A DNA stretch of 64,000 nt from Brachybacterium sp. Z12 (lineage in GTDB: Bacteria > Actinomycetota > Actinomycetes > Actinomycetales > Dermabacteraceae), in NCBI RefSeq assembly GCF_014400405.1, contig NZ_CP060496.1, positions 2,666,001-2,730,000 of the forward strand, given 5' to 3'. The translations under genes were made by a program, and so were the position numbers. Below are positions 1 through 54,593 of the stretch, in pieces. Position 1 is the first letter of the stretch; the number at the start of each line of letters is the position of its first letter. The notes below the pieces were generated by a model, which made no database searches, was not told the origin of the DNA, and saw nothing but the letters and a program-made list of their open reading frames with translations.

Positions 1-198
1 GCGCTCGGGCGGGAGATCCGGGGCCGGAAGGTCACCACGTCGACCGAGCTGGCCACGGTGATCCTCGAGGAGGCGGAGGTCGCCGCCGTGCCCGGTGAGG
101 CCTTCGGCGCCCCCGGCCATCTGCGCTTCTCGTATGCCCTTGCCGATGACGACATCACCGAGGGCATCGACCGGGTGGCCGCGCTCCTGGCCGAATGA
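1..198 (+). CDS. Aminotransferase class I/II, C-terminal fragment
   Basis: Only the last 65 codons are in the window; the gene runs in from the left edge. The translation ends with a typical fold-type I PLP aminotransferase tail: an acidic helix, a VPGEAFG segment, then HLRFSYA (the arginine that binds the substrate alpha-carboxylate in this family) and a final helix ending in LLAE. This matches the end of aspartate/aromatic aminotransferases of the AspC/DapC/Aat class; the substrate cannot be told from this piece. The stop overlaps the start of the adenosine deaminase gene (ATGA), so the two are translationally coupled. Confidence 0.75.
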
Positions 199-1231
199 GC
201 GGGGCGGAGGGCACGGTCCGCGATCTTGCGGCACTGCCCAAGGCGCACCTGCACCTCCACTTCACGGGGTCGATGCGCCAGCAGACGCTCCTGGACCTGG
301 CGGTGGAGCGAGGCATCCGCCTGCCCCGCTCCCTCACCGACGACGTCGCGCTGCAGGTGGAGCCCACCCGTCGTGGCTGGTTCCGCTTCCAGCGCCAGTA
401 CGACGCGGCGCGGGCCGTCGTCGACTCCGAGACGGCGATGCGCCGCCTCCTGCACGAAGCGGCGCTGGACGATGCCGCGGAGGGCTCGGGGCGGCTCGAG
501 CTGCAGGTGGACCCCACCAGCTACGCGCCCTTCGTGGGCGGCCTGACCCCGGCGATCGAGATCCTGCTGGATCAGGCGGCGCGCTCGGAGCAGGAGACGG
601 GTGTGAGCATCGGGATCGTCATCGCCGCCTCCCGCACCCGCCATCCTCTGGATGCCCGCACCCTCGCGCGGCTCGCGGCCCGCAATGCCGGTCCGGTGAT
701 CGGTTTCGGGCTGTCGAACGACGAACGCCGAGGGATCACCGCGGAGTACGGCCCGGCCTTCCGGATCGCGCGCGAGGCGGGGCTGCTGTCGGTGCCGCAC
801 GGCGGCGAGCTGCTGGGCCCCTCCCATGTCCGGGACGTGGTGGAGCATCTGCATCCGCACCGGCTGGGCCACGGGGTGCGTGCAGCGGAGGATCCCGAGC
901 TGCTGGACCGGATCGTCGAGGCCGGGATCGGCCTCGAGGTCTGCCCGGCCTCCAACGCCTCGTTGGGGGTGGTGGAGAACGCCGTCGATGTGCCGCTGCG
1001 GCGGCTGGTCGAGGCGGGCGCGGAGATCGCCCTCGGCGCCGACGACCCGCTGCTGTTCGGCTCCCGCCTCCTGGACCAGTACGAGACCGCGAGGGCGATC
1101 GGCTTCGACGACGCCGAGCTCGCGGAGCTCGCCGCCGCCTCCATCAGGATCTCGGCCGCGCCCGAGCAGGTGAGGAGCGACTGCTGGGCGGTGTGCGGGA
1201 CTGGCTCGCCTCCGCCCCGGCCGCGCTCTAG
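195..1231 (+). CDS. add: Adenosine deaminase (frame break near 1180)
   Basis: Zinc-dependent amidohydrolase of the adenosine/adenine deaminase family, converting adenosine to inosine in purine salvage. The N-terminal metal motif HLHLHF lies at residues 18-23. Later come PHGGE (His ligand and catalytic Glu), [14 protein letters not shown] and LGADDP (Asp ligand), in family order. Length is about 345 residues, normal for the family. The start overlaps the aminotransferase stop by ATGA. As written the frame runs to 1241 with an unfamiliar tail; shifting by one base near 1180 restores [13 protein letters not shown] and a stop at 1231, so a one-base indel is likely. Confidence 0.85.
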
Positions 1232-46932: not shown

Positions 46933-48366
46933 TCATTCGTGCGGCAGCTCCACGTGGTGCTCGAGCACCGGCAGTGCGGCCCGCGCGGCCGCGATCTCCT
47001 CGAGGTCGAGATCGACCAGCAGCAGTCCGGGTTCGCGTCCCAGCTCCTGGCGGAGAGCGCCGAGCGGGCCGACGACGGCGCTGCGGCCGATGCCCCGTGT
47101 GGCCTTCCCGGTGTACTCCGCAGGCGGGGCTTGATCGGCGGCGAGCACGACGGTGGTCGAGTCCAGGGCGCGGGCGCGCAGCAGCAGCTGCAGTTGCTCG
47201 CGCTTGCCGGGGCCCTCCGCCCAGGCCAGGGGCAGCAGGATCGCCTGCGCCCCGCGACGGGCCAGCGCCGTGAACTGCTCGGGGAAACGCACGTCGTAGC
47301 AGGTCGCGATCCCGAATCGGGTGCCGTGCAGGTCGAAGGTGACCAGCTCATCCCCCGGGGCGACGGTGCGGGACTCATCGGCCCCGAAGGCGTCGAACAG
47401 GTGGATCTTGCGGTAGTCGAGGTGCGGGTCCCAGTTCGGGCCGCGCACGATCACGGTGTTGTGGACGCGGCCGTCCTCGGTGGGGGTGAAGGAGCCGGCG
47501 ACCACCACCACCGAGTGCTGCTCCGCCAGTTCCTGGACCAGCTGGGCGAAGGCGTCGTGGTGCGCAATCGCCACATCCCGCAGATCGGTGCCGAAGGGGG
47601 TGAGCGTCGCCTCGGGCAAAAGCACCAGGTGAGCACCCTCCTCCGCGGCTTCTGCCACTGCGCCGCACACGGTCGCGAAAGTCTCCTCGACATCCTCGGA
47701 GACCTCGATCTGGGCCAGCGCGATCCGGGGCCCGGCGGCGCGGCGCACCTGTTCGAGGAGGTCCGGGGTGTCGATGTCCGCCCCTTCGGCGCCGGTGGCG
47801 GGCAGCGTCATCAGCTCCTCCTCGCCGAGCCGGCCGTAGAGGCGGCGCAGGCTCAGATCCGCCCAGCCGCCGTGCGGGTGCGCGACCGCGGCGAGCGCCT
47901 CGCGCAGCCGGCCCAGGGGCCAGGCGGCGGCGAGGAACTGGAGGTGGCCGTCCTTCGCCTCGAGCGCGACCACCCGGGAGGTCGCCGCGCTGCGGGCCGC
48001 GAGAGCACGCAGCGTCTCGGGGCGCAGCATGGGCATGTCCCCGCCGAGCACCAGCACGGTCGCGGCGTCGGACCCTTCGGAGAACTCGTCGACACCGCGG
48101 GCGAGAGCGGCCAGCGGCCCGGAGCGCGGCGGGTCCTCGAGCACGAAGCGGGCGCCATGGCGGGAGGCGAGCTCATCGCCGTCCTCACCGCTGGGGCCCA
48201 CCACGATGCGGCGGCCGACGGGCGCGGTGCGCAGCACCCGCTCGAGCACGCTGGTCCCGGCGATCGGCAGCCGGGTCTTGTCCGTCCCGCCGAGGCGGGA
48301 GGAGGCGCCACCGGCCAGGATCACGGCGGCGACGGTGGCAGAGGTCTCGTGGGGCGCGCTCGACAT
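46933..48366 (-). CDS. MobA-like nucleotidyltransferase fused to carbon-nitrogen hydrolase
   Basis: One intact frame of 477 residues joins two enzymes. Residues 1-215: NTP_transferase_3 domain with the nucleotide motif VILAGGASSRLGG, LVLGGDMPML (metal-binding Asp) and DIDTPDLLE, as in MobA molybdenum-cofactor guanylyltransferase. Residues 216-477: nitrilase-superfamily amidase beginning RIALAQIEV with the triad Glu in LLPEATLTPFG, Lys in YRKIHLFDAFG and Cys in ATCYDVRFPE. The junction AGPRIALAQ has no start codon, so the second half is not a separate gene. Substrates unknown. ATG at 48366. Confidence 0.85.
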   Translation of the reverse strand: MSSAPHETSATVAAVILAGGASSRLGGTDKTRLPIAGTSVLERVLRTAPVGRRIVVGPSGEDGDELASRHGARFVLEDPPRSGPLAALARGVDEFSEGSDAATVLVLGGDMPMLRPETLRALAARSAATSRVVALEAKDGHLQFLAAAWPLGRLREALAAVAHPHGGWADLSLRRLYGRLGEEELMTLPATGAEGADIDTPDLLEQVRRAAGPRIALAQIEVSEDVEETFATVCGAVAEAAEEGAHLVLLPEATLTPFGTDLRDVAIAHHDAFAQLVQELAEQHSVVVVAGSFTPTEDGRVHNTVIVRGPNWDPHLDYRKIHLFDAFGADESRTVAPGDELVTFDLHGTRFGIATCYDVRFPEQFTALARRGAQAILLPLAWAEGPGKREQLQLLLRARALDSTTVVLAADQAPPAEYTGKATRGIGRSAVVGPLGALRQELGREPGLLLVDLDLEEIAAARAALPVLEHHVELPHE

Positions 48367-48440
48367 GCCTCGATCCTCCCACGGGACGCTAGGATGACCG
48401 CGGCCCTTCGTCGCGGCATCTGCTGCGGCCGGGTGGTTTC

Positions 48441-48513
48441 GCCCCCGTAGCTCAGGGGATAGAGCACCGCTCTCCTAAAGCGGGTGTCGGACGTTCGAAT
48501 CGTCTCGGGGGCA
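48441..48513 (+). tRNA. tRNA-Arg (CCT anticodon)
   Basis: Folds as a 73-nt cloverleaf: acceptor GCCCCCG/CGGGGGC plus discriminator A, D-arm GCTC...GAGC, anticodon arm CCGCT-CTCCTAA-AGCGG with CCT in the loop, and T-arm GGACG-TTCGAAT-CGTCT. No encoded CCA. It carries the attL end of the downstream island. Confidence 0.95.
48472..48489. other. attL core, 18 bp inside tRNA-Arg
   Basis: CTCCTAAAGCGGGTGTCG runs from the anticodon loop into the variable region. The identical 18 bases recur at 54517-54534. Beyond the core the two copies differ in the T-arm. Confidence 0.75.
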
Positions 48514-48538
48514 CGAAGATGACCAGCACGAACGCGCC

Positions 48539-48905
48539 TCACCGCGCCTTCTCCAGTGATCCGTCGGGTTCCTGTGACCCCCGCGGACACCCGCCCGGCC
48601 GTTGATCAGTGCCAGCGTCTTCACTTCCCACGACATGCGTTTAGCGCGGTGTGACCTACAGCGACGAGTAGCCCGCCCAGGTCCGCACGGTGGCCAGCGG
48701 TACTCCCGCACGAGCCCACTCGGACACGGCGACGTGGCGAAGGTCGTACAGCCGCAGCTCCGGAGCGATCACCGCCTAGCGCACATCACGACGCAGGTTA
48801 CGCGACGCGACCAGTCCTCCCCGGGAGCAGTGAACACACGATCCCGTGGTGCACGGGTCACGATGTGACGCTCCAAGTCCTCCCGGACAGCTGCCGCCAC
48901 CGGAA
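48539..48905 (-). pseudogene. Tyrosine recombinase (integrase) C-terminal remnant
   Basis: Reading toward the tRNA, the fragment shows VREDLERHIVTRAPRDRVF, then (other frame) GGLVASRNLRRDVR, an in-frame TAG at 48776-48778, LRLYDLRHVAVSEWARAG with the catalytic H-x-L-R motif region, LATVRTWAGYSSL, a TAG at 48656-48658 and VTPR followed by TAA at 48641-48643 where the nucleophilic tyrosine is expected, then THV. So the active-site residue is lost to a stop. The stop TGA at 48539 lies 26 bp from the tRNA, the usual place for an integrase gene. Confidence 0.75.
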
Positions 48906-49206
48906 CGAATGAAGTCGAGGTCGCGACCCTCGTAGCTGAGCGGCTCACGCTGGATCGGTCCGTGGGCGATCTCGGGAGCCTCGGGCTGCGCGGCGTCGAA
49001 CTCCGCGAGCATCTCCTCGACCTTCTCGGGGCTGTCCTCCCGCGGGAGACGTTCCGTGCCGCGACGGTTTCGCTCATCTCCCGGTTGAGCTTCCAGTGCT
49101 TGCGTGCCGAGTGCTCGTGTTACTTGTCCCGCAGGAATCCTTGCACGTCCTCGTTGTCGTTCAGGCCGAGCTTCTCGGCCACTTGCTTGGGTCGCCATGT
49201 CGTCAT
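48905..49206 (-). pseudogene. Small helix-turn-helix type protein remnant
   Basis: Starts TTWRPKQVAEKLGLNDNED (a DNA-binding-like helix pair), reaches GFLRDK, then a TAA stop and continues in frame as HEHSARKHWKLNREM. Downstream the frame shifts to KVEEMLAEFDAAQPEAPEI and PLSYEGRDLDFIR. No family recognised; the pieces could come from more than one gene. Not functional as written. Confidence 0.4.
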
Positions 49207-49339
49207 AGCGCTGACCGTAGCGGTCAGGTGCGACATGCGGGGGTCGAACCCTGCATCGTCACCGAAAGTTCGCTGTGAAGGCGACTCGACGTCGAGCCTT
49301 CGCTGGCGAAGCGCGAGCCGTGAGGGCCATGGCGCTCGG

Positions 49340-49505
49340 TGGTTGACGCGGTCGCGAACATATCGCGCGGCGGATCCGAGGGTGGCTGCCGGCACACGAC
49401 GCAGCGCCCCGCGGTCGCAGAGATCGACGACATGCTAACGAGAGACGCCGAGCATGCCTGCCGTCTCTGCCGTGGTCAGCCAGCCCTTCACCGGGATGAC
49501 CACTT
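49340..49505 (-). pseudogene. Excisionase-like HTH remnant
   Basis: Minus strand frame reads GWLTTAETAGMLGVSR, a TAG stop, then HVVDLCDRGALRRVP. This is the pattern of helix-turn-helix type 17 (Xis/MerR-like) DNA-binding domains that partner integrases, broken by one nonsense codon in the turn region. Together with the integrase remnant it forms the decayed recombination module of the island. Confidence 0.55.
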
Positions 49506-49531
49506 ACGTCCGAGCACCACAAACACAACGA

Positions 49532-49579
49532 AGGGGTCGTCACCTCGATCGGACGTGACCGATCGAGGCGACGACCCCT
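49532..49579. terminator. Long hairpin terminator
   Basis: Arms AGGGGTCGTCACCTCGATCGG and CCGATCGAGGCGACGACCCCT pair over 21 positions with one mismatch around a 6-base loop. It follows the small membrane protein gene of the cysteine-rich precursor operon. Confidence 0.8.
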
Positions 49580-49591
49580 AGGTATGCGGAG

Positions 49592-49784
49592 TCAGGAGTC
49601 GAACTTCGGCTTGACCTGCCAGGCGTAGAACGCGCTGGCGGCAGCAAGCCCCGAGTACCACCACGATCAAGCCGGCAACCTCGTTCCCGCCCCGGATCGC
49701 GCTGGGTAGAAGCAGAATCAACACCGCGGATGAAACGACCATCACGGCGAAGGACGCAAGAAAATGCCAGATCGACTTAGTCAT
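49592..49784 (-). CDS. Small two-helix membrane protein, possible immunity protein (frame break)
   Basis: About 64 residues. MTKSIWHFLASFAVMVVSSA forms the first helix, a charged turn (RGGNE) follows and the second helix is VAGLIVVVLG plus, after a one-base repair, LAAASAFYAWQVKPKFDS to the stop at 49592. It starts 21 bp after the cysteine-rich precursor gene on the same strand and shares the terminator. Small two-helix membrane proteins next to bacteriocin genes are often immunity proteins; that role is inferred. Confidence 0.5.
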
Positions 49785-49804
49785 GACCAGATTATCCTTT
49801 CGAC

Positions 49805-50541
49805 TCAAGAAAGGCAGCCCATGACACCCGCGATGGAAGCAGCACCGATGGTTGCCACCCCGCCTATGCATGCCGCGCAGACTGCTGCAGTCGGCGCGGT
49901 GTACGGAACCGCGCACGCGCCGCCACACATATTCACGATGAGGGCCGCGACAACAATGCTCACTCCAAGGACTGCTGCCACACACTTCACCTCGGATGAG
50001 ACCATCAATTCAATCCCGCCAGATTCTCCAGAGACCTCGCTGGGATCGATGGAGTCAGTACGAAGAAGCTCACCGCCTTCATACATGGTGATCTCGAACG
50101 GCCCATCGTCGATTTGGGTGACGATGGACTCTGCATACTCCGCGATCTGCTCGTTGGAGTCGAGTAGTACGAAGGTAAGGTTGCTGACCTCGACATGGTG
50201 AGCTCCCGAGATCGGGAAGGACACCACTGTCGCGGTCTCGGAACCGAAGTCGATCGTGTACACCTTCGCGTTCGAGTAGCCCACCGTTTCGGGGGAAGAG
50301 TGCGGGGTGATACCTGACGAATCCGCCAGTTTCCTCACATGTGCAACCAGCCTCTGCGTCTCATCTGCTCCGGCGAGAACAAAGTCGGGGGCATCGCCTC
50401 CGTTGAGTTCTGCGCGCCCCCTCTGAGAGCAGTCACCCTGTTCGGTGATGTTTCAGCATTCGCCTGGGCCCCGATAGCGACCGTCCCGCCGATAAGCGCG
50501 GCAGGCGCTAGCTTCATAAGGTTCCTGCGTGTTGTACCCAT
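49805..50541 (-). CDS. Tat-exported precursor with cysteine-rich hydrophobic C-terminus, halocin-C8-like bacteriocin candidate (frame break near 50415)
   Basis: Start ATG 50541 has GGGGG six bases upstream; an ATG at 50544 also exists. The N-terminus is a twin-arginine signal, MGTTRRNLMKLAPAALIGG ending AQANA. After a break near 50415 (repair gives ELNGGDAPDFVLAGADETQ) comes a soluble middle domain of about 110 residues, then a C-terminus from KCVAAV with six cysteines spaced C-x18-C-x3-C-x11-C-x2-C-x17-C, including CGGAC and CAAC, and otherwise Gly/Ala/Val/Ile. Tat signal, middle domain and Cys-rich hydrophobic end is the layout of halocin C8 precursors. About 245 residues. Function inferred only. 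Confidence 0.6.
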
Positions 50542-50810
50542 CATTCACCCCCATACGGACCGGGGAACCCGGTGCCGCTCGTTGCAATCATCTCTGGCTA
50601 CTACGTGATTACGACGCTATCGCGGCGGTCGATGAGTGTCAACGAATCAGGCAATCGGTGGTGTCATAGCGTCGTAGCAACACTCCCGGTCGGTGGAAGC
50701 CCTAGGCGAGGAGGCCAGGGATGGCACGGCGGGGATTGACGTTCACAGAGCGGTCGGAGATCTCGACAGCGGCGAAAGCGGGATGGGGCGTCTGCGGGTC
50801 AAGTCCCTGG

Positions 50811-52198
50811 AAGTGGTGTAGCGGTCCTCCGTTGAGAAGGGTCAGGCTGTCAGCGCGGGCAGGGCATCGGTACTCACCTCGTTCCCGGGGCTGGTGGTGG
50901 TGAGTGTGAGACGGCAGCGGGCGAGGACGTCGAGGCCGAGGTAACGGCGTCCTTCGGCCCATTCATCGGTCTGCTCGGCCAGGACCGCGCTGACGAGGCG
51001 GACGATCGCGTCGCGGGTAGGGAATATTCCGACGGAATCGGTGCGGCGGCGGATCTCGCGGTTCAGCCGTTCGGTGGGATTGTTCGACCAGATCTGGACC
51101 CAGACGTCCTTGGGGAAGCCGGTGAACGCGAGCACGTCAGCGCGGGCGGCGTCGAGGTGCTCGGCCACGGCCGGGAGCTTCTCACTGACATAGTCCAGCA
51201 GCCGGTCGAACTGGGCGTTCACGGCTGTCGCGTCGGGCTGGTCATAGACGCTGTGGAGCATCGCCTTCACCGCTGGCCACATTCCCTTGGGACAGATGCT
51301 CTTCAGGTTCGCGGCGTGGTGGGTGCGGCATCGCTGCCAGGACGCCCCGGGCAGATGCGCGGCGATCGCCTCGACCAGCCCGGCGTGCGCGTCGGAGGTG
51401 ACCAGGCGAACTCCACCCAAGCCTCGGACGACGAGGTCAGCGAAGAAACTGCTCCATGCCGCGCCGGTCTCGCTGGTGGCGACCCGCATGCCGAGAACCT
51501 CGCGGTGCCCGTCGCCGTTGACGCCGGTCGCGAGCAAGACGACCGCGTTGATCACTCGGCCGCCTTCGCGGACCTTCATCGTCAGCGCGTCGGCGGAGAC
51601 GAACGTGAACGGGCCAGCAGCGTCCAGAGGCCGGTGGCGGAACTGCTCGACGTGCTCGTCGAGCTCGGCGGCTGCCATGCGGCTGACCTGTGACTTCGAG
51701 TGGCTGTTGATGCCGAGGGTCCACCAGTTTGTCCATGCGGCGGGTGGAGACGCCGGCGAGATAGCAGTCCGCCACGACCATGATCAGGGCGGACTCGGCA
51801 CGCTTGCGACGCTCGAGCAGCCAGTCCGGGAAGTAAGTACCGGTGCGGAGCTTGGGGACGGCCACGTCGATCGTGCCGAGGCGGGTATCGAGGTCGCGGT
51901 GGCGATAGCCGTTGCGCTGGGCAGACCGGTCGGGGCTGGGCCGGCCGTACTCCGCGCCGGCGACCGCATCAGCGTCCGCGGAGAGGAGCTCGTTGATGAT
52001 CGTCTGCAGCATGCTGCGCATCAGATCTGGGGAGGCTTCGGCCAGGGCTTCACCGAGCAGGCCATGAGGGTCGACAATATGAGGAGCGGTCATCGTGATG
52101 ACTCCGTTCGAGAGTGCTGTGGAAGGTTCACTCGAAGGATCACACGGTGGCCGCGTCCTCGTCCGGGACGATCACGGGGCCACCGCGCTACACCACTA
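50811..52198 (-). mobile_element. IS256-family insertion sequence
   Basis: The ends share the inverted core AGTGGTGTAGCG (left 50812-50823; complement at 52186-52197), which is typical of the IS256 group termini, and enclose one transposase gene on the minus strand. It sits inside the IS30 transposase gene. No convincing 8-bp target duplication is visible. Confidence 0.75.
50842..52093 (-). CDS. IS256-family transposase (frame break near 51725)
   Basis: Mutator-type DDE transposase. N-terminal part (from ATG 52093) has [40 protein letters not shown] and [10 protein letters not shown], then a break, then [13 protein letters not shown]. The catalytic acids are in [21 protein letters not shown] and [14 protein letters not shown]; the CxxH-type region WQRCRTHH is present. 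About 415 residues after repair, the family length, so the element may be recent; the single break may be an assembly indel. Confidence 0.85.
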
Positions 52199-53090
52199 TG
52201 CGGGGCTCAACTCGTCTGCGCCGGAACTCGACGAAGACTCGTGGCTATCAGGCCGTGACAGCTGACGTGAGGGCGCAGCGCCGCCGGTCCCGCCCGCAGC
52301 CGAGGAAGGTCGCGAAGGATCCCGTGCTCAAGGTCCGGGTGAACGCCGACCTCGCAGAGTCATGGACACCGCACGAGATCGCGGGCCGCTTGCGTCTGGA
52401 GGCCGCAGACCCGACCGTTGAACGCATAGCCAACTCCCCGACGCTCACGGCCGCACCGTCAGCGGAGAAGCGATTTACCAGTACATCTACGCGATCCCGC
52501 GCGGGGAACTCGCCAAGCGCGGGATCTTCCTGCAGCCCAAGCGGACCAAGCGGCGTGCCCGGACAACGGGTCGGTCCCGGGGCGGGCCGATCGTGGGTAT
52601 GGCCCGGATCGCGGAACGCGGCGAGGATGCCGCCGCCCGGCGGGTCCCTGGTCGCTGGGAGGGTGAACTGACCATCGGGAAGAACGGGACCTCGTGCGCC
52701 GCGACGCTGGTGGAGCGGATGAGCGGGTTCACCGGCCTGCTGGCCCTGCCCTCGATACACGCCGAGGGCACCGCAGATGCGGTCATCGACTACTTCAATG
52801 AGTTACCCGAGATGATGCGCGCCTCACTGGCGTGGGACCAGGGCAGCGAGATGGCCCAGCACGCAAAGGTTTCCCTGACCACAGACATGCCGGTCTACTT
52901 CGCTGATCCCCACTCGCCGTGGCAGCGGCCCACCAACGAGAACACGAACCGCCTCTACCGGGAGTAGTACCTCCCCAAGGGCACCGCGATCCCGGACCAC
53001 CAGCCCTATCTGACCACCATCGCAGAGGAAATCAACAACCGTCCCCGCCGCCGTCTGGGCTTCCTCACGCCCACGGAATCCTTCACCCGA

Positions 53091-53495
53091 CTACTCGCCG
53101 GCGATCCTCATGTTGCTTCCACGCTTTGACACCACCGCCCTCCAGGACTTCTCTAGCTCCGCAACTGTTATATTGGACTTCACCTCGATCACCGCGTCGC
53201 AGCACTCGACCGGCACGATTCGATAGCTATCGTCCGTCCACAGCGGTGGAGTGATGGCATCGATAATCATCACGTCGCACTGCCCAGAGCGTTGGCCAAA
53301 ACTTGAAATAAGTTCTCCGCTACCTGCGACTTCGGCCGTTCGAAGGAAGTAATCATCCAGAAATCGACGCAGTGCATCCTCGCGCAATGCTCCCTTGGAA
53401 CCTCTATGTTCCACGATTCCACTGCCTCGAAAGTCGCTCTCCATCTTGGTAGCGATCTCTTCAAGAATCCGATGCAAACCCTCGTCTGCAGCCAT
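53091..53495 (-). pseudogene. DUF6602-like nuclease-fold protein, truncated by IS30
   Basis: ATG 53495. The N-terminal helix ADEGLHRILEEIATKMESDF leads into VEHRGSKGALREDALRRFLDDY, then DVMIIDAITPPLW and the strand-helix ECCDAVIEVKSNITVAELE. A glutamate/lysine EVKS following an acidic DVMIID is the layout of restriction-endonuclease folds, and the whole matches DUF6602 proteins seen in defence islands. Coding sequence proper ends at 53137, where IS30 begins; the last 15 codons come from the element. The native C-terminus is missing. Confidence 0.55.
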
Positions 53496-53740
53496 GGGAC
53501 CATGATGCCAGACTTCTTACCCTGAGAGCACTCTGCTCGTGATGCTCCCAGCTCGTCGTAAGCATGTGCTGTCGTGGCCGATCTGCGAAGCCGCCGGATC
53601 GTCAATACACATGCGAGAACTTTCCTTACGGACTCAAGGCGGCGGCTCCGCCACCGCGCGGCGCCCAGCGCCGTCCGCCCGCGTGTCCTCGCTCCGCTGC
53701 GGGCCGCGGTGCTCCGTCGCTGTGCTGCCGAATAGCAAAA

Positions 53741-53771
53741 GCCGGTCCCCTCTCGTCAGGAAGGGACCGGC
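53741..53771 (-). terminator. Hairpin terminator after the gene at 53785-54225
   Basis: Arms GCCGGTCCCCT and AGGGACCGGC pair; on the minus strand the stem is followed by TTTTGCTATTC, giving a short T-run. Confidence 0.75.
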
Positions 53772-53784
53772 CACGCTCATGGGA

Positions 53785-54225
53785 TCAGTCGTCATGCATT
53801 GCACGTATCAAGTCAGCCTCCTCTGCGTCGGTACGCAGAAGCTGGACTGTCGTCTGAATATCCTCGGCCGCTAACCCCCACTCCATCGCTGCGTACTCCC
53901 GCAAGAGCTCCTCCAGTTCAAATGGGTCCTCTGCCTCGGCAGTCGCCACCGGGGTCATGAATACCCCGAAGACCTGGCCCTCGTCATCTTCATATGCCAC
54001 GGCCACCGCCTCCTTCACAGCTCGGCCGTGCAGGGCGTGCTCAGGGCGGTCGCCCATGACCAGACGCCACAGGCCGACATGCTCTTCGATACGATTCCGA
54101 GGCACCCGCTTCACGAGCGGATACCCCGCTGGATGGTCTTGCTCTTCGACGTACTCTGCGGATGGCGCATGTTCCACGCCATCTTCCACGGGCGTGCGCC
54201 GCGGATCTTGTCTCTCTTCACTCAT
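53785..54225 (-). CDS. Hypothetical acidic protein, island cargo
   Basis: Predicted 146-residue soluble protein from ATG 54225, rich in Glu and Asp. Segments include YPLVKRVPRNRIEEHVGLWR, AVKEAVAVAYEDDEGQVFGV and FELEELLREYAAMEWGLAAE. No domain or signal peptide recognised. It is the last gene before the attR end, has its own terminator and its composition differs from the core genes. The 290 bp upstream (54226-54516) hold no gene that can be supported. Confidence 0.5.
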   Translation of the reverse strand: MSEERQDPRRTPVEDGVEHAPSAEYVEEQDHPAGYPLVKRVPRNRIEEHVGLWRLVMGDRPEHALHGRAVKEAVAVAYEDDEGQVFGVFMTPVATAEAEDPFELEELLREYAAMEWGLAAEDIQTTVQLLRTDAEEADLIRAMHDD

Positions 54226-54516: not shown

Positions 54517-54558
54517 CTCCTAAAGCGGGTGTCGCGCGTTCGATTCGCGCCGGGGGCA
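54517..54558. other. attR: displaced 3' end of tRNA-Arg
   Basis: Contains the 18-bp core (54517-54534) followed by a T-arm GCGCG-TTCGATT-CGCGC and CGGGGGCA, which would complete the tRNA acceptor stem. This is a full alternative 3' half without a 5' half, and probably the original tRNA end before the island replaced it with its own copy. Confidence 0.75.
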
Positions 54559-54593
54559 CTGCAGGAACTACAGGTCAGAGCTGTACAGCGTCG

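What the first reader, a model, noticed from the sequence alone, without database searches (positions are those of the whole stretch)
49592..50541. Candidate halocin-C8-like bacteriocin precursor with a putative immunity partner
A Tat signal, a soluble middle region and a hydrophobic C-terminus with six cysteines (C-x18-C-x3-C-x11-C-x2-C-x17-C) form the layout of halocin C8 precursors, where the N-terminal part is immunity and the C-terminus the peptide. A two-helix membrane protein of about 64 residues follows 21 bp later and they share a strong terminator. A Tat-exported cysteine-rich peptide of this kind in a decayed actinobacterial island is not a common annotated system.
Basis: inference. 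Interest (0 to 1): 0.78.

Follow-up and report, generated by a model that had tools for sequence, protein, structure and literature searches.

The report
Two-gene secreted bacteriocin cassette
This looks like a two-gene weapon kit, an exported protein ending in a small six-cysteine peptide plus a tiny membrane protein that probably protects its maker, with relatives on islands, plasmids and phages in two bacterial phyla; none of this activity has been shown yet.

Summary
The features are real. On the minus strand at 50541-49581 lie a Tat-type signal, an acidic middle region, a hydrophobic C-terminal core with six cysteines, a two-helix small ORF starting 20 nt downstream, and a strong terminator. 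As sequenced, the signal is in another frame than the rest; 12 of 30 comparable ORFs elsewhere in the window are also split, so this need not be decay. Relatives occur in other Micrococcales, Streptomyces, Bacillota plasmids and SPbeta-like Bacillus phages. The six cysteines are the only invariant columns of 22 aligned sequences, the core changes least, and 19 of 23 relatives carry a 54-84-residue two-helix ORF directly downstream, against 2 of 897 and 0 of 260 control ORFs. The core alone folds in silico as four helices. The cassette sits on a 6-kb island at tRNA-Arg with an empty site in relatives. No halocin-C8 model (TIGR04449, TIGR04450) reaches its cut-off, so membership is not shown; layout and probable action resemble it. 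Best reading: an undescribed family of exported, protease-released, disulfide-bonded bacteriocins with a separate membrane immunity protein. Killing, cleavage and immunity are inferred.

The parts
50338..50541 (-). N-terminal piece: twin-arginine signal of the precursor, in a different frame from the rest (ORF of 68 aa; only its first part is precursor)
   Evidence: TIGR01409 19.3 bits, cut-off 16.7; frames
49808..50452 (-). main open piece of the precursor, 215 aa: acidic middle region and C-terminal core
   Evidence: homologues; phrog_33667 E 2.4e-05
49808..50005 (-). C-terminal core as modelled, 66 residues, six cysteines, predicted four-helix fold; the proposed active peptide
   Evidence: alignment A2, spacing, selection, model
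49581..49784 (-). small two-helix membrane protein, proposed immunity partner; last residues probably off-frame as sequenced
   Evidence: partner in 19 of 23 homologue loci; BLASTP E 1e-10 to the partner of L145
49532..49579 (-). strong intrinsic terminator after both genes
48441..48514 (+). tRNA-Arg (anticodon CCT), left end and attachment site of the island
54517..54559 (+). 43-nt copy of the tRNA-Arg 3' half, right end of the island (86% identical)
   Evidence: left and right flanks side by side in relatives L072, L082, L083, L090
48515..54559 (.). 6.05-kb genomic island that carries the cassette
   Evidence: G+C 0.63-0.67 in the blocks 48001-54000, at the low end for the window

Best explanation
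A mobile two-gene bacteriocin cassette. Gene 1 encodes a precursor that is exported (Tat or Sec). Its middle region keeps the very hydrophobic C-terminus soluble and inactive; outside the cell six cysteines form three disulfides that lock a compact four-helix peptide of about 65 residues; an extracellular protease cuts it free and it acts on membranes of nearby relatives. Gene 2, a protein of 54-84 residues with two membrane helices, protects the producer. In one sub-group two different precursors lie in tandem with one partner, which suggests a two-peptide form. Shown here: export signal, conserved core and cysteines, conserved partner, presence on mobile elements, predicted fold. Inferred: disulfides, cleavage, killing, target and immunity.
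For: Six cysteines are the only invariant columns of the 22 rows of A2; spacing is 18-3-11-2-17 in 14 of 15 rows of one group and 17-3-7-2-14 in 7 of 7 of the other; core hydropathy 0.88-1.62 with at most 3 charges of either sign. In five pairs the core is 81-97% identical while middle (42-80%) and signal (28-75%) drift; dN 0.014 in the core against 0.10-0.16 in the middle for the two closest pairs (dS is saturated in several of the others). Core model pLDDT 79.6, helices 4-13, 17-32, 37-50, 55-65, cysteines at 8, 27, 31, 43, 46, 64. Two-helix partner directly downstream in 19 of 23 loci, with 2 of 897 and 0 of 260 controls, then in 2 of 3 loci found later and in 21 of 21 closely related viral contigs; a two-helix ORF upstream on the same strand in L029, L144, L037, L038 and divergent in L069. 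Two broken copies, L056 (no core) and L064/L066 (core cut short), keep an intact two-helix ORF, as an orphan immunity gene would. Apart from the precursor (11 of 12 loci) no ORF family of 70 aa or more is shared by more than 3 of 12 neighbourhoods. The pair is found on a tRNA island, plasmids and SPbeta-like phages. Tandem precursors with one partner in L011, L036, L061.
Against: No activity data. No bacteriocin model reaches its cut-off. No protease, exporter or disulfide enzyme is shared by the neighbourhoods (which tests sharing only, not what each locus holds). In phage Goe11 the pair lies in a run of hypothetical genes with yorP, yorR and nrdI, not beside a known host-conversion gene. The window copy is frame-broken as sequenced. 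The middle region is acidic in the window (18 D+E, 2 K+R) but not in every relative. L003 and L035 show no partner nearby.
Confidence: 0.7

Rival explanations
1. A true, very diverged halocin-C8-type system in which the N-terminal region of the precursor is itself the immunity factor and the small partner is an accessory.
For: Same layout as halocin C8: exported precursor of 283 aa that yields an immunity part and a 76-aa peptide (passages of PMC11509114). TIGR04450 (Gram-positive C8-like) is touched below cut-off by L029 (E 0.051), L011 (0.082), L036 (0.22) and L069 (1.8), 4 of 25 members scanned, always ending at model positions 235-239 of 240, and by 0 of 5 reversed sequences.
Against: TIGR04449 and TIGR04450 cut-offs never met, and 21 of 25 members give no TIGR04450 match at all. 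NF040679 also matched a reversed sequence (E 0.11), so its weak matches (E 0.39 and 7.9) carry no weight. The middle region drifts faster than the core and a separate partner is usual.
Confidence: 0.12
2. A maintenance or exclusion module of mobile elements: the exported protein acts within the producer's own population, against cells that lack the element or against incoming elements, rather than as a weapon between species.
For: The family sits on phages, plasmids and an island; in SPbeta the bacteriocin sublancin also serves prophage maintenance (passages of PMC8270828); the phage copy lies away from known conversion genes.
Against: The hydrophobic disulfide-type core under strong constraint and one small membrane partner fit a diffusible peptide. 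Many copies lie in genome contigs whose surroundings I did not type, so the link to mobile elements is not shown for them.
Confidence: 0.1
3. A secreted signal or a structural surface protein with a membrane-inserted hairpin; the partner is its membrane docking factor.
For: Core hydropathy is in the range of membrane segments; the partner is a membrane protein.
Against: Cysteine spacing and near-absence of change in the core; sporadic distribution, 8 other genomes of 396 in the order and 0 of 46 others in the family, unlike a structural protein.
Confidence: 0.08

Closest known systems
Halocin C8 (haloarchaea; TIGR04449 domain)
   Same: Exported precursor, long N-terminal part, C-terminal antimicrobial peptide released by proteolysis (passages of PMC11509114 and PMC12893001)
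   Different: No match to its model; six cysteines (halocin C8 has more, recalled); separate two-helix partner gene; Tat signal over cut-off only in the window copy
TIGR04450, Gram-positive C8-like putative immunity/bacteriocin fusion
   Same: Sub-threshold matches in 4 of 25 members, each ending at the model's C-terminus
   Different: At most 13.2 bits against a cut-off of 27; its name implies fused immunity, here there is a separate partner
phrog_33667 (unknown function; Bacillus SPbeta-like phages Goe11, Goe13, Goe14)
   Same: Homologous over most of the precursor: window E 2.4e-05, L067 6.9e-164; BLASTP of window against L067 E 2e-10; a 54-aa two-helix ORF overlaps the stop by 4 nt in 21 of 21 related viral contigs
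   Different: One more cysteine pair outside the six (read); annotated as hypothetical
SdpC/SdpI of Bacillus subtilis
   Same: Exported precursor whose hydrophobic C-terminal peptide is the toxin, with a membrane immunity protein (recalled)
   Different: No SdpC match; SdpI only at E 0.56 for one partner

Membership tests
Halocin C8 (TIGR04449) | C-terminal domain over the curated cut-off (24 bits) | tested here: not met
   no match in own genome; 0 of 246 phylum genomes over cut-off; none for the window pieces; the control Haloferax volcanii did match
Halocin C8 (TIGR04449) | Tat export signal | tested here: inconclusive
   window signal passes TIGR01409 but lies in another frame; no TIGR01409 match in the other 21 rows of A2
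Halocin C8 (TIGR04449) | N-terminal part confers immunity | not testable with these tools
   needs an experiment
Halocin C8 (TIGR04449) | mature C-terminal peptide kills relatives | not testable with these tools
   needs an experiment
TIGR04450 Gpos_C8_like | whole protein over 27 bits | tested here: not met
   best 13.2 bits; 0 of 198 order genomes over cut-off
phrog_33667 | significant match over most of the profile (no curated cut-off) | tested here: met
   window 33-209 on 63-246 of 252, E 2.4e-05; L006 E 0.0006; L061 first gene E 1.2e-10; L067 E 6.9e-164; the second gene of L061 does not match
SdpC/SdpI | Pfam match of precursor or partner | tested here: not met

The most novel reading that the evidence does not exclude
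An unnamed bacteriocin superfamily that spans Actinomycetota and Bacillota and moves on SPbeta-like phages, plasmids and tRNA islands: one exported precursor with a three-disulfide four-helix core plus one two-helix immunity protein, no dedicated exporter or modifying enzyme, with a one-peptide and a tandem two-peptide form. It would make phages such as Goe11 carriers of a further kind of bacteriocin and would be a bacterial counterpart of protease-activated halocin precursors.
Probability: 0.5. Interest if true: 0.75.

Novelty: new variant of a known kind. Interest (0 to 1): 0.62.

Why it matters
It defines by sequence a compact two-gene system that no NCBIfam or Pfam model covered at its cut-off in the members scanned (the Tat signal apart) and that PHROGs lists as unknown function. 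Because copies sit in phages of a laboratory Bacillus subtilis strain, killing and immunity can be tested directly. A 2026 paper on protease-activated haloarchaeal precursors says that no native bacterial precursor had been identified for that kind of interaction (passage of PMC12893001); this family is a candidate. Small, seemingly enzyme-free, disulfide-stabilised peptides would be easy to make and study.

Tried and rejected
TIGR04449 and TIGR04450 membership: tested, not met. NF040679 similarity: dropped because a reversed sequence matched as well. The one search hit in G641 (18.9 bits) was set aside on reading its frame. L012 reads as a DnaJ-like zinc region (by eye) and was dropped. In one search, 16 of 23 genomes have only matches of E 4e-6 to 9e-4 in open frames of 440-588 aa; I took them as chance and did not examine them. 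Rows: ORFs were picked out of homologous loci with a loose cysteine filter that fixed the C-x3-C and C-x2-C pairs, so part of the invariance in A2 is by construction; the homologous loci that fail the filter are L037 (pattern changed), L056 (core missing) and L064/L066 (core cut short). Also left out of A2: L015 (split over frames), the first gene of L036, L065 (partial), and L067-L069 and L143-L145 (found later). The 23 loci leave out L037, L056, L064/L066 and L069, and L143-L145, found later. Most of the 897 controls are open stretches that need not be genes, so a stricter set of 260 non-overlapping ORFs was added (0 partners). Fold search of the core found nothing (best E 8.6); the 215-aa model is too poor to use (pLDDT 43.5). 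PDB sequences: nothing relevant (best E 0.024 to an RNA-binding protein). PADLOC: one row at E 0.021 for L061, none else. Viral-contig scans with the window, L006, L009 and L061 proteins found no relative; L067 found 21 loci. Members of TIGR04449 or TIGR04450 for a profile-profile test could not be obtained. Papers: the searches in the open PMC library listed no paper that I recognised as describing this family; I saw listings only, and passages of three papers (PMC11509114, PMC12893001 with its abstract, PMC8270828).

Full report
What is there. On the minus strand the order is signal piece (50541-50338), main precursor piece (50452-49808, 215 codons open), small two-helix ORF (49784-49581), terminator (49579-49532). 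The signal piece passes the TIGR01409 Tat model (19.3 bits, cut-off 16.7). Signal and main piece are in different frames. The terminator is very stable (-50.9 kcal/mol, z -7.55).

Decay or sequencing error. The genome is one contig of 3.51 Mb with completeness 85.7%; 33 of 37 same-genus genomes score 99-100. From 90 kb of the relative G014 I took 62 non-overlapping ORFs of 150 codons or more; 30 could be placed in the window (over 55% identity, at least 60% covered), none inside the island, and 12 of these 30 fall into more than one frame. Frame breaks are thus common in this window and those in the cassette need not mean decay. Some of the 30 may be shadow ORFs, which does not affect the frame count. 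The organism is probably Brachybacterium (recalled from the look of the genome; no call names it).

Relatives. In the family only the own genome has the gene (1 of 47). In the order 10 of 396 genomes matched; one is the own and one a DnaJ-like false hit, leaving 8. In the phylum 2 of 396 including the own. With alignment A1 in two families of the order: 23 of 178 nominal, of which 7 are strong (E 7.5e-15 or better) and 16 weak and set aside, and 4 of 60. In the class 4 of 394 at E 1e-6 or better, including the own. These searches share some genomes. Named relatives: Nesterenkonia sp. F; plasmids of Arthrobacter agilis, a Streptomyces and Pseudalkalibacillus; through the second group, plasmids of Bacillus velezensis, Terribacillus and B. 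pumilus; SPbeta-like phages Goe11, Goe13, Goe14; 21 viral contigs. The window protein itself matches the B. velezensis member with E 2e-10 over 190 residues and phrog_33667 with E 2.4e-05. The distribution is sporadic and crosses phyla, as expected of a mobile trait.

The core. In A2 (22 rows) the six cysteines are the only invariant columns. Rows were chosen partly with a loose cysteine filter, as told under Tried and rejected; the exact lengths of the long gaps were not fixed by it. Group I (15 rows, with the window) has spacing 18-3-11-2-17 except L003 (9 in the third gap); group II (7 rows) has 17-3-7-2-14 in all. The Bacillus phage members keep six at similar spacing and add an outer pair; the B. 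pumilus member has the group II spacing (both read). Exceptions among homologous loci are L037, L056 and L064/L066. In five pairs the core is 81-97% identical where middle and signal are 42-80% and 28-75%; for the two closest pairs the core's dN is 0.014 at dS 0.72-0.88. The core on its own gave a four-helix model of pLDDT 79.6 from two sequences, the other four models 67-70; no solved structure resembles it. The C-x3-C and C-x2-C pairs sit in helices 2 and 3, the outer cysteines in helices 1 and 4, which suggests a disulfide-clamped helical hairpin with an outer bridge (inference; distances were not measured).

The partner. An ORF of 45-95 residues with two hydrophobic segments, starting between -20 and +80 of the precursor stop, occurs in 19 of 23 homologue loci; the controls are 2 of 897 open stretches and 0 of 260 non-overlapping ORFs. 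Three loci found afterwards gave 2 of 3 (L143, L145; not L144). L029, L144, L037 and L038 have a two-helix ORF upstream on the same strand and L069 a divergent one; L003 and L035 have none nearby. In 21 of 21 viral contigs, which are 93-100% alike and so not independent, a 54-aa two-helix ORF starts 4 nt inside the precursor's end. Several partners share a pattern around 'LPxLF' (by eye); the window partner matches that of L145 with E 1e-10 and that of L028 with E 0.001. No NCBIfam model names the ten partners scanned. Three loci (L011, L036, L061) have two different precursors and one partner. Two broken copies keep an intact two-helix ORF: L056, which lacks the core, and L064/L066, whose core is cut short. 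Among 12 neighbourhoods the precursor is shared by 11 and no other ORF family of 70 aa or more by more than 3.

The island. tRNA-Arg (CCT) at 48441-48514 has a 43-nt copy of its 3' half at 54517-54559. Of 29 relatives' loci at this tRNA that were compared, 4 (L072, L082, L083, L090) have the window's left and right flanks side by side, an empty site. In the other 25 the right flank did not appear in the roughly 1.5 kb held beyond the tRNA; at least two of these are cut by contig ends (L071, L091). The island also holds an IS256-family element whose copies on actinobacterial plasmids are 75-83% identical.

Known families. Apart from the Tat signal, NCBIfam and Pfam give no match over cut-off for the window pieces or the relatives scanned. 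TIGR04450 appears below cut-off in 4 of 25 members and in 0 of 5 reversed controls; NF040679 appears in a reversed control too. I take TIGR04450 as a hint, not proof, of distant kinship with halocin-C8-like proteins. Halocin C8 itself is an exported 283-residue precursor that gives an immunity part and a 76-residue peptide (passages of PMC11509114); its protease is unidentified (passage of PMC12893001).

Verdict. It works most likely like a halocin-C8 or SdpC type bacteriocin, but with its own cysteine pattern and a separate two-helix partner. It is not shown to be a member of either family. Killing, immunity and cleavage are inferences.

Noticed in passing
window 50793-52213, inverted arms 50795-50823 and 52186-52214: IS256-family element next to the cassette, with copies 75-83% identical on plasmids of Kocuria, Mycobacterium, Dietzia and others; its transposase reads in more than one frame here.
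   Followed up: partly
window 52114-53254 and 53495-53091: Fragments that look like an IS30-type transposase and a nuclease-like protein (recalled resemblance, no search run).
   Followed up: no
window 48441-48514: tRNA-Arg may be an insertion hotspot in this genus: only 4 of 29 relatives' loci compared show the window's right flank next to it.
   Followed up: partly
L011, L036, L061: Two different precursors in tandem with one partner, as in two-peptide bacteriocins.
   Followed up: partly
L056 (1411-1929) and L064/L066: Broken precursors (core missing or cut short) followed by an intact two-helix ORF, possibly immunity-only remnants.
   Followed up: partly
L142, 3992-4911: Phage Goe11 carries the pair (c01390, c01400, both hypothetical) between yorR and nrdI.
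   Followed up: partly
window as a whole: 12 of 30 comparable ORFs are split over frames, so annotation of this assembly is unreliable.
   Followed up: yes
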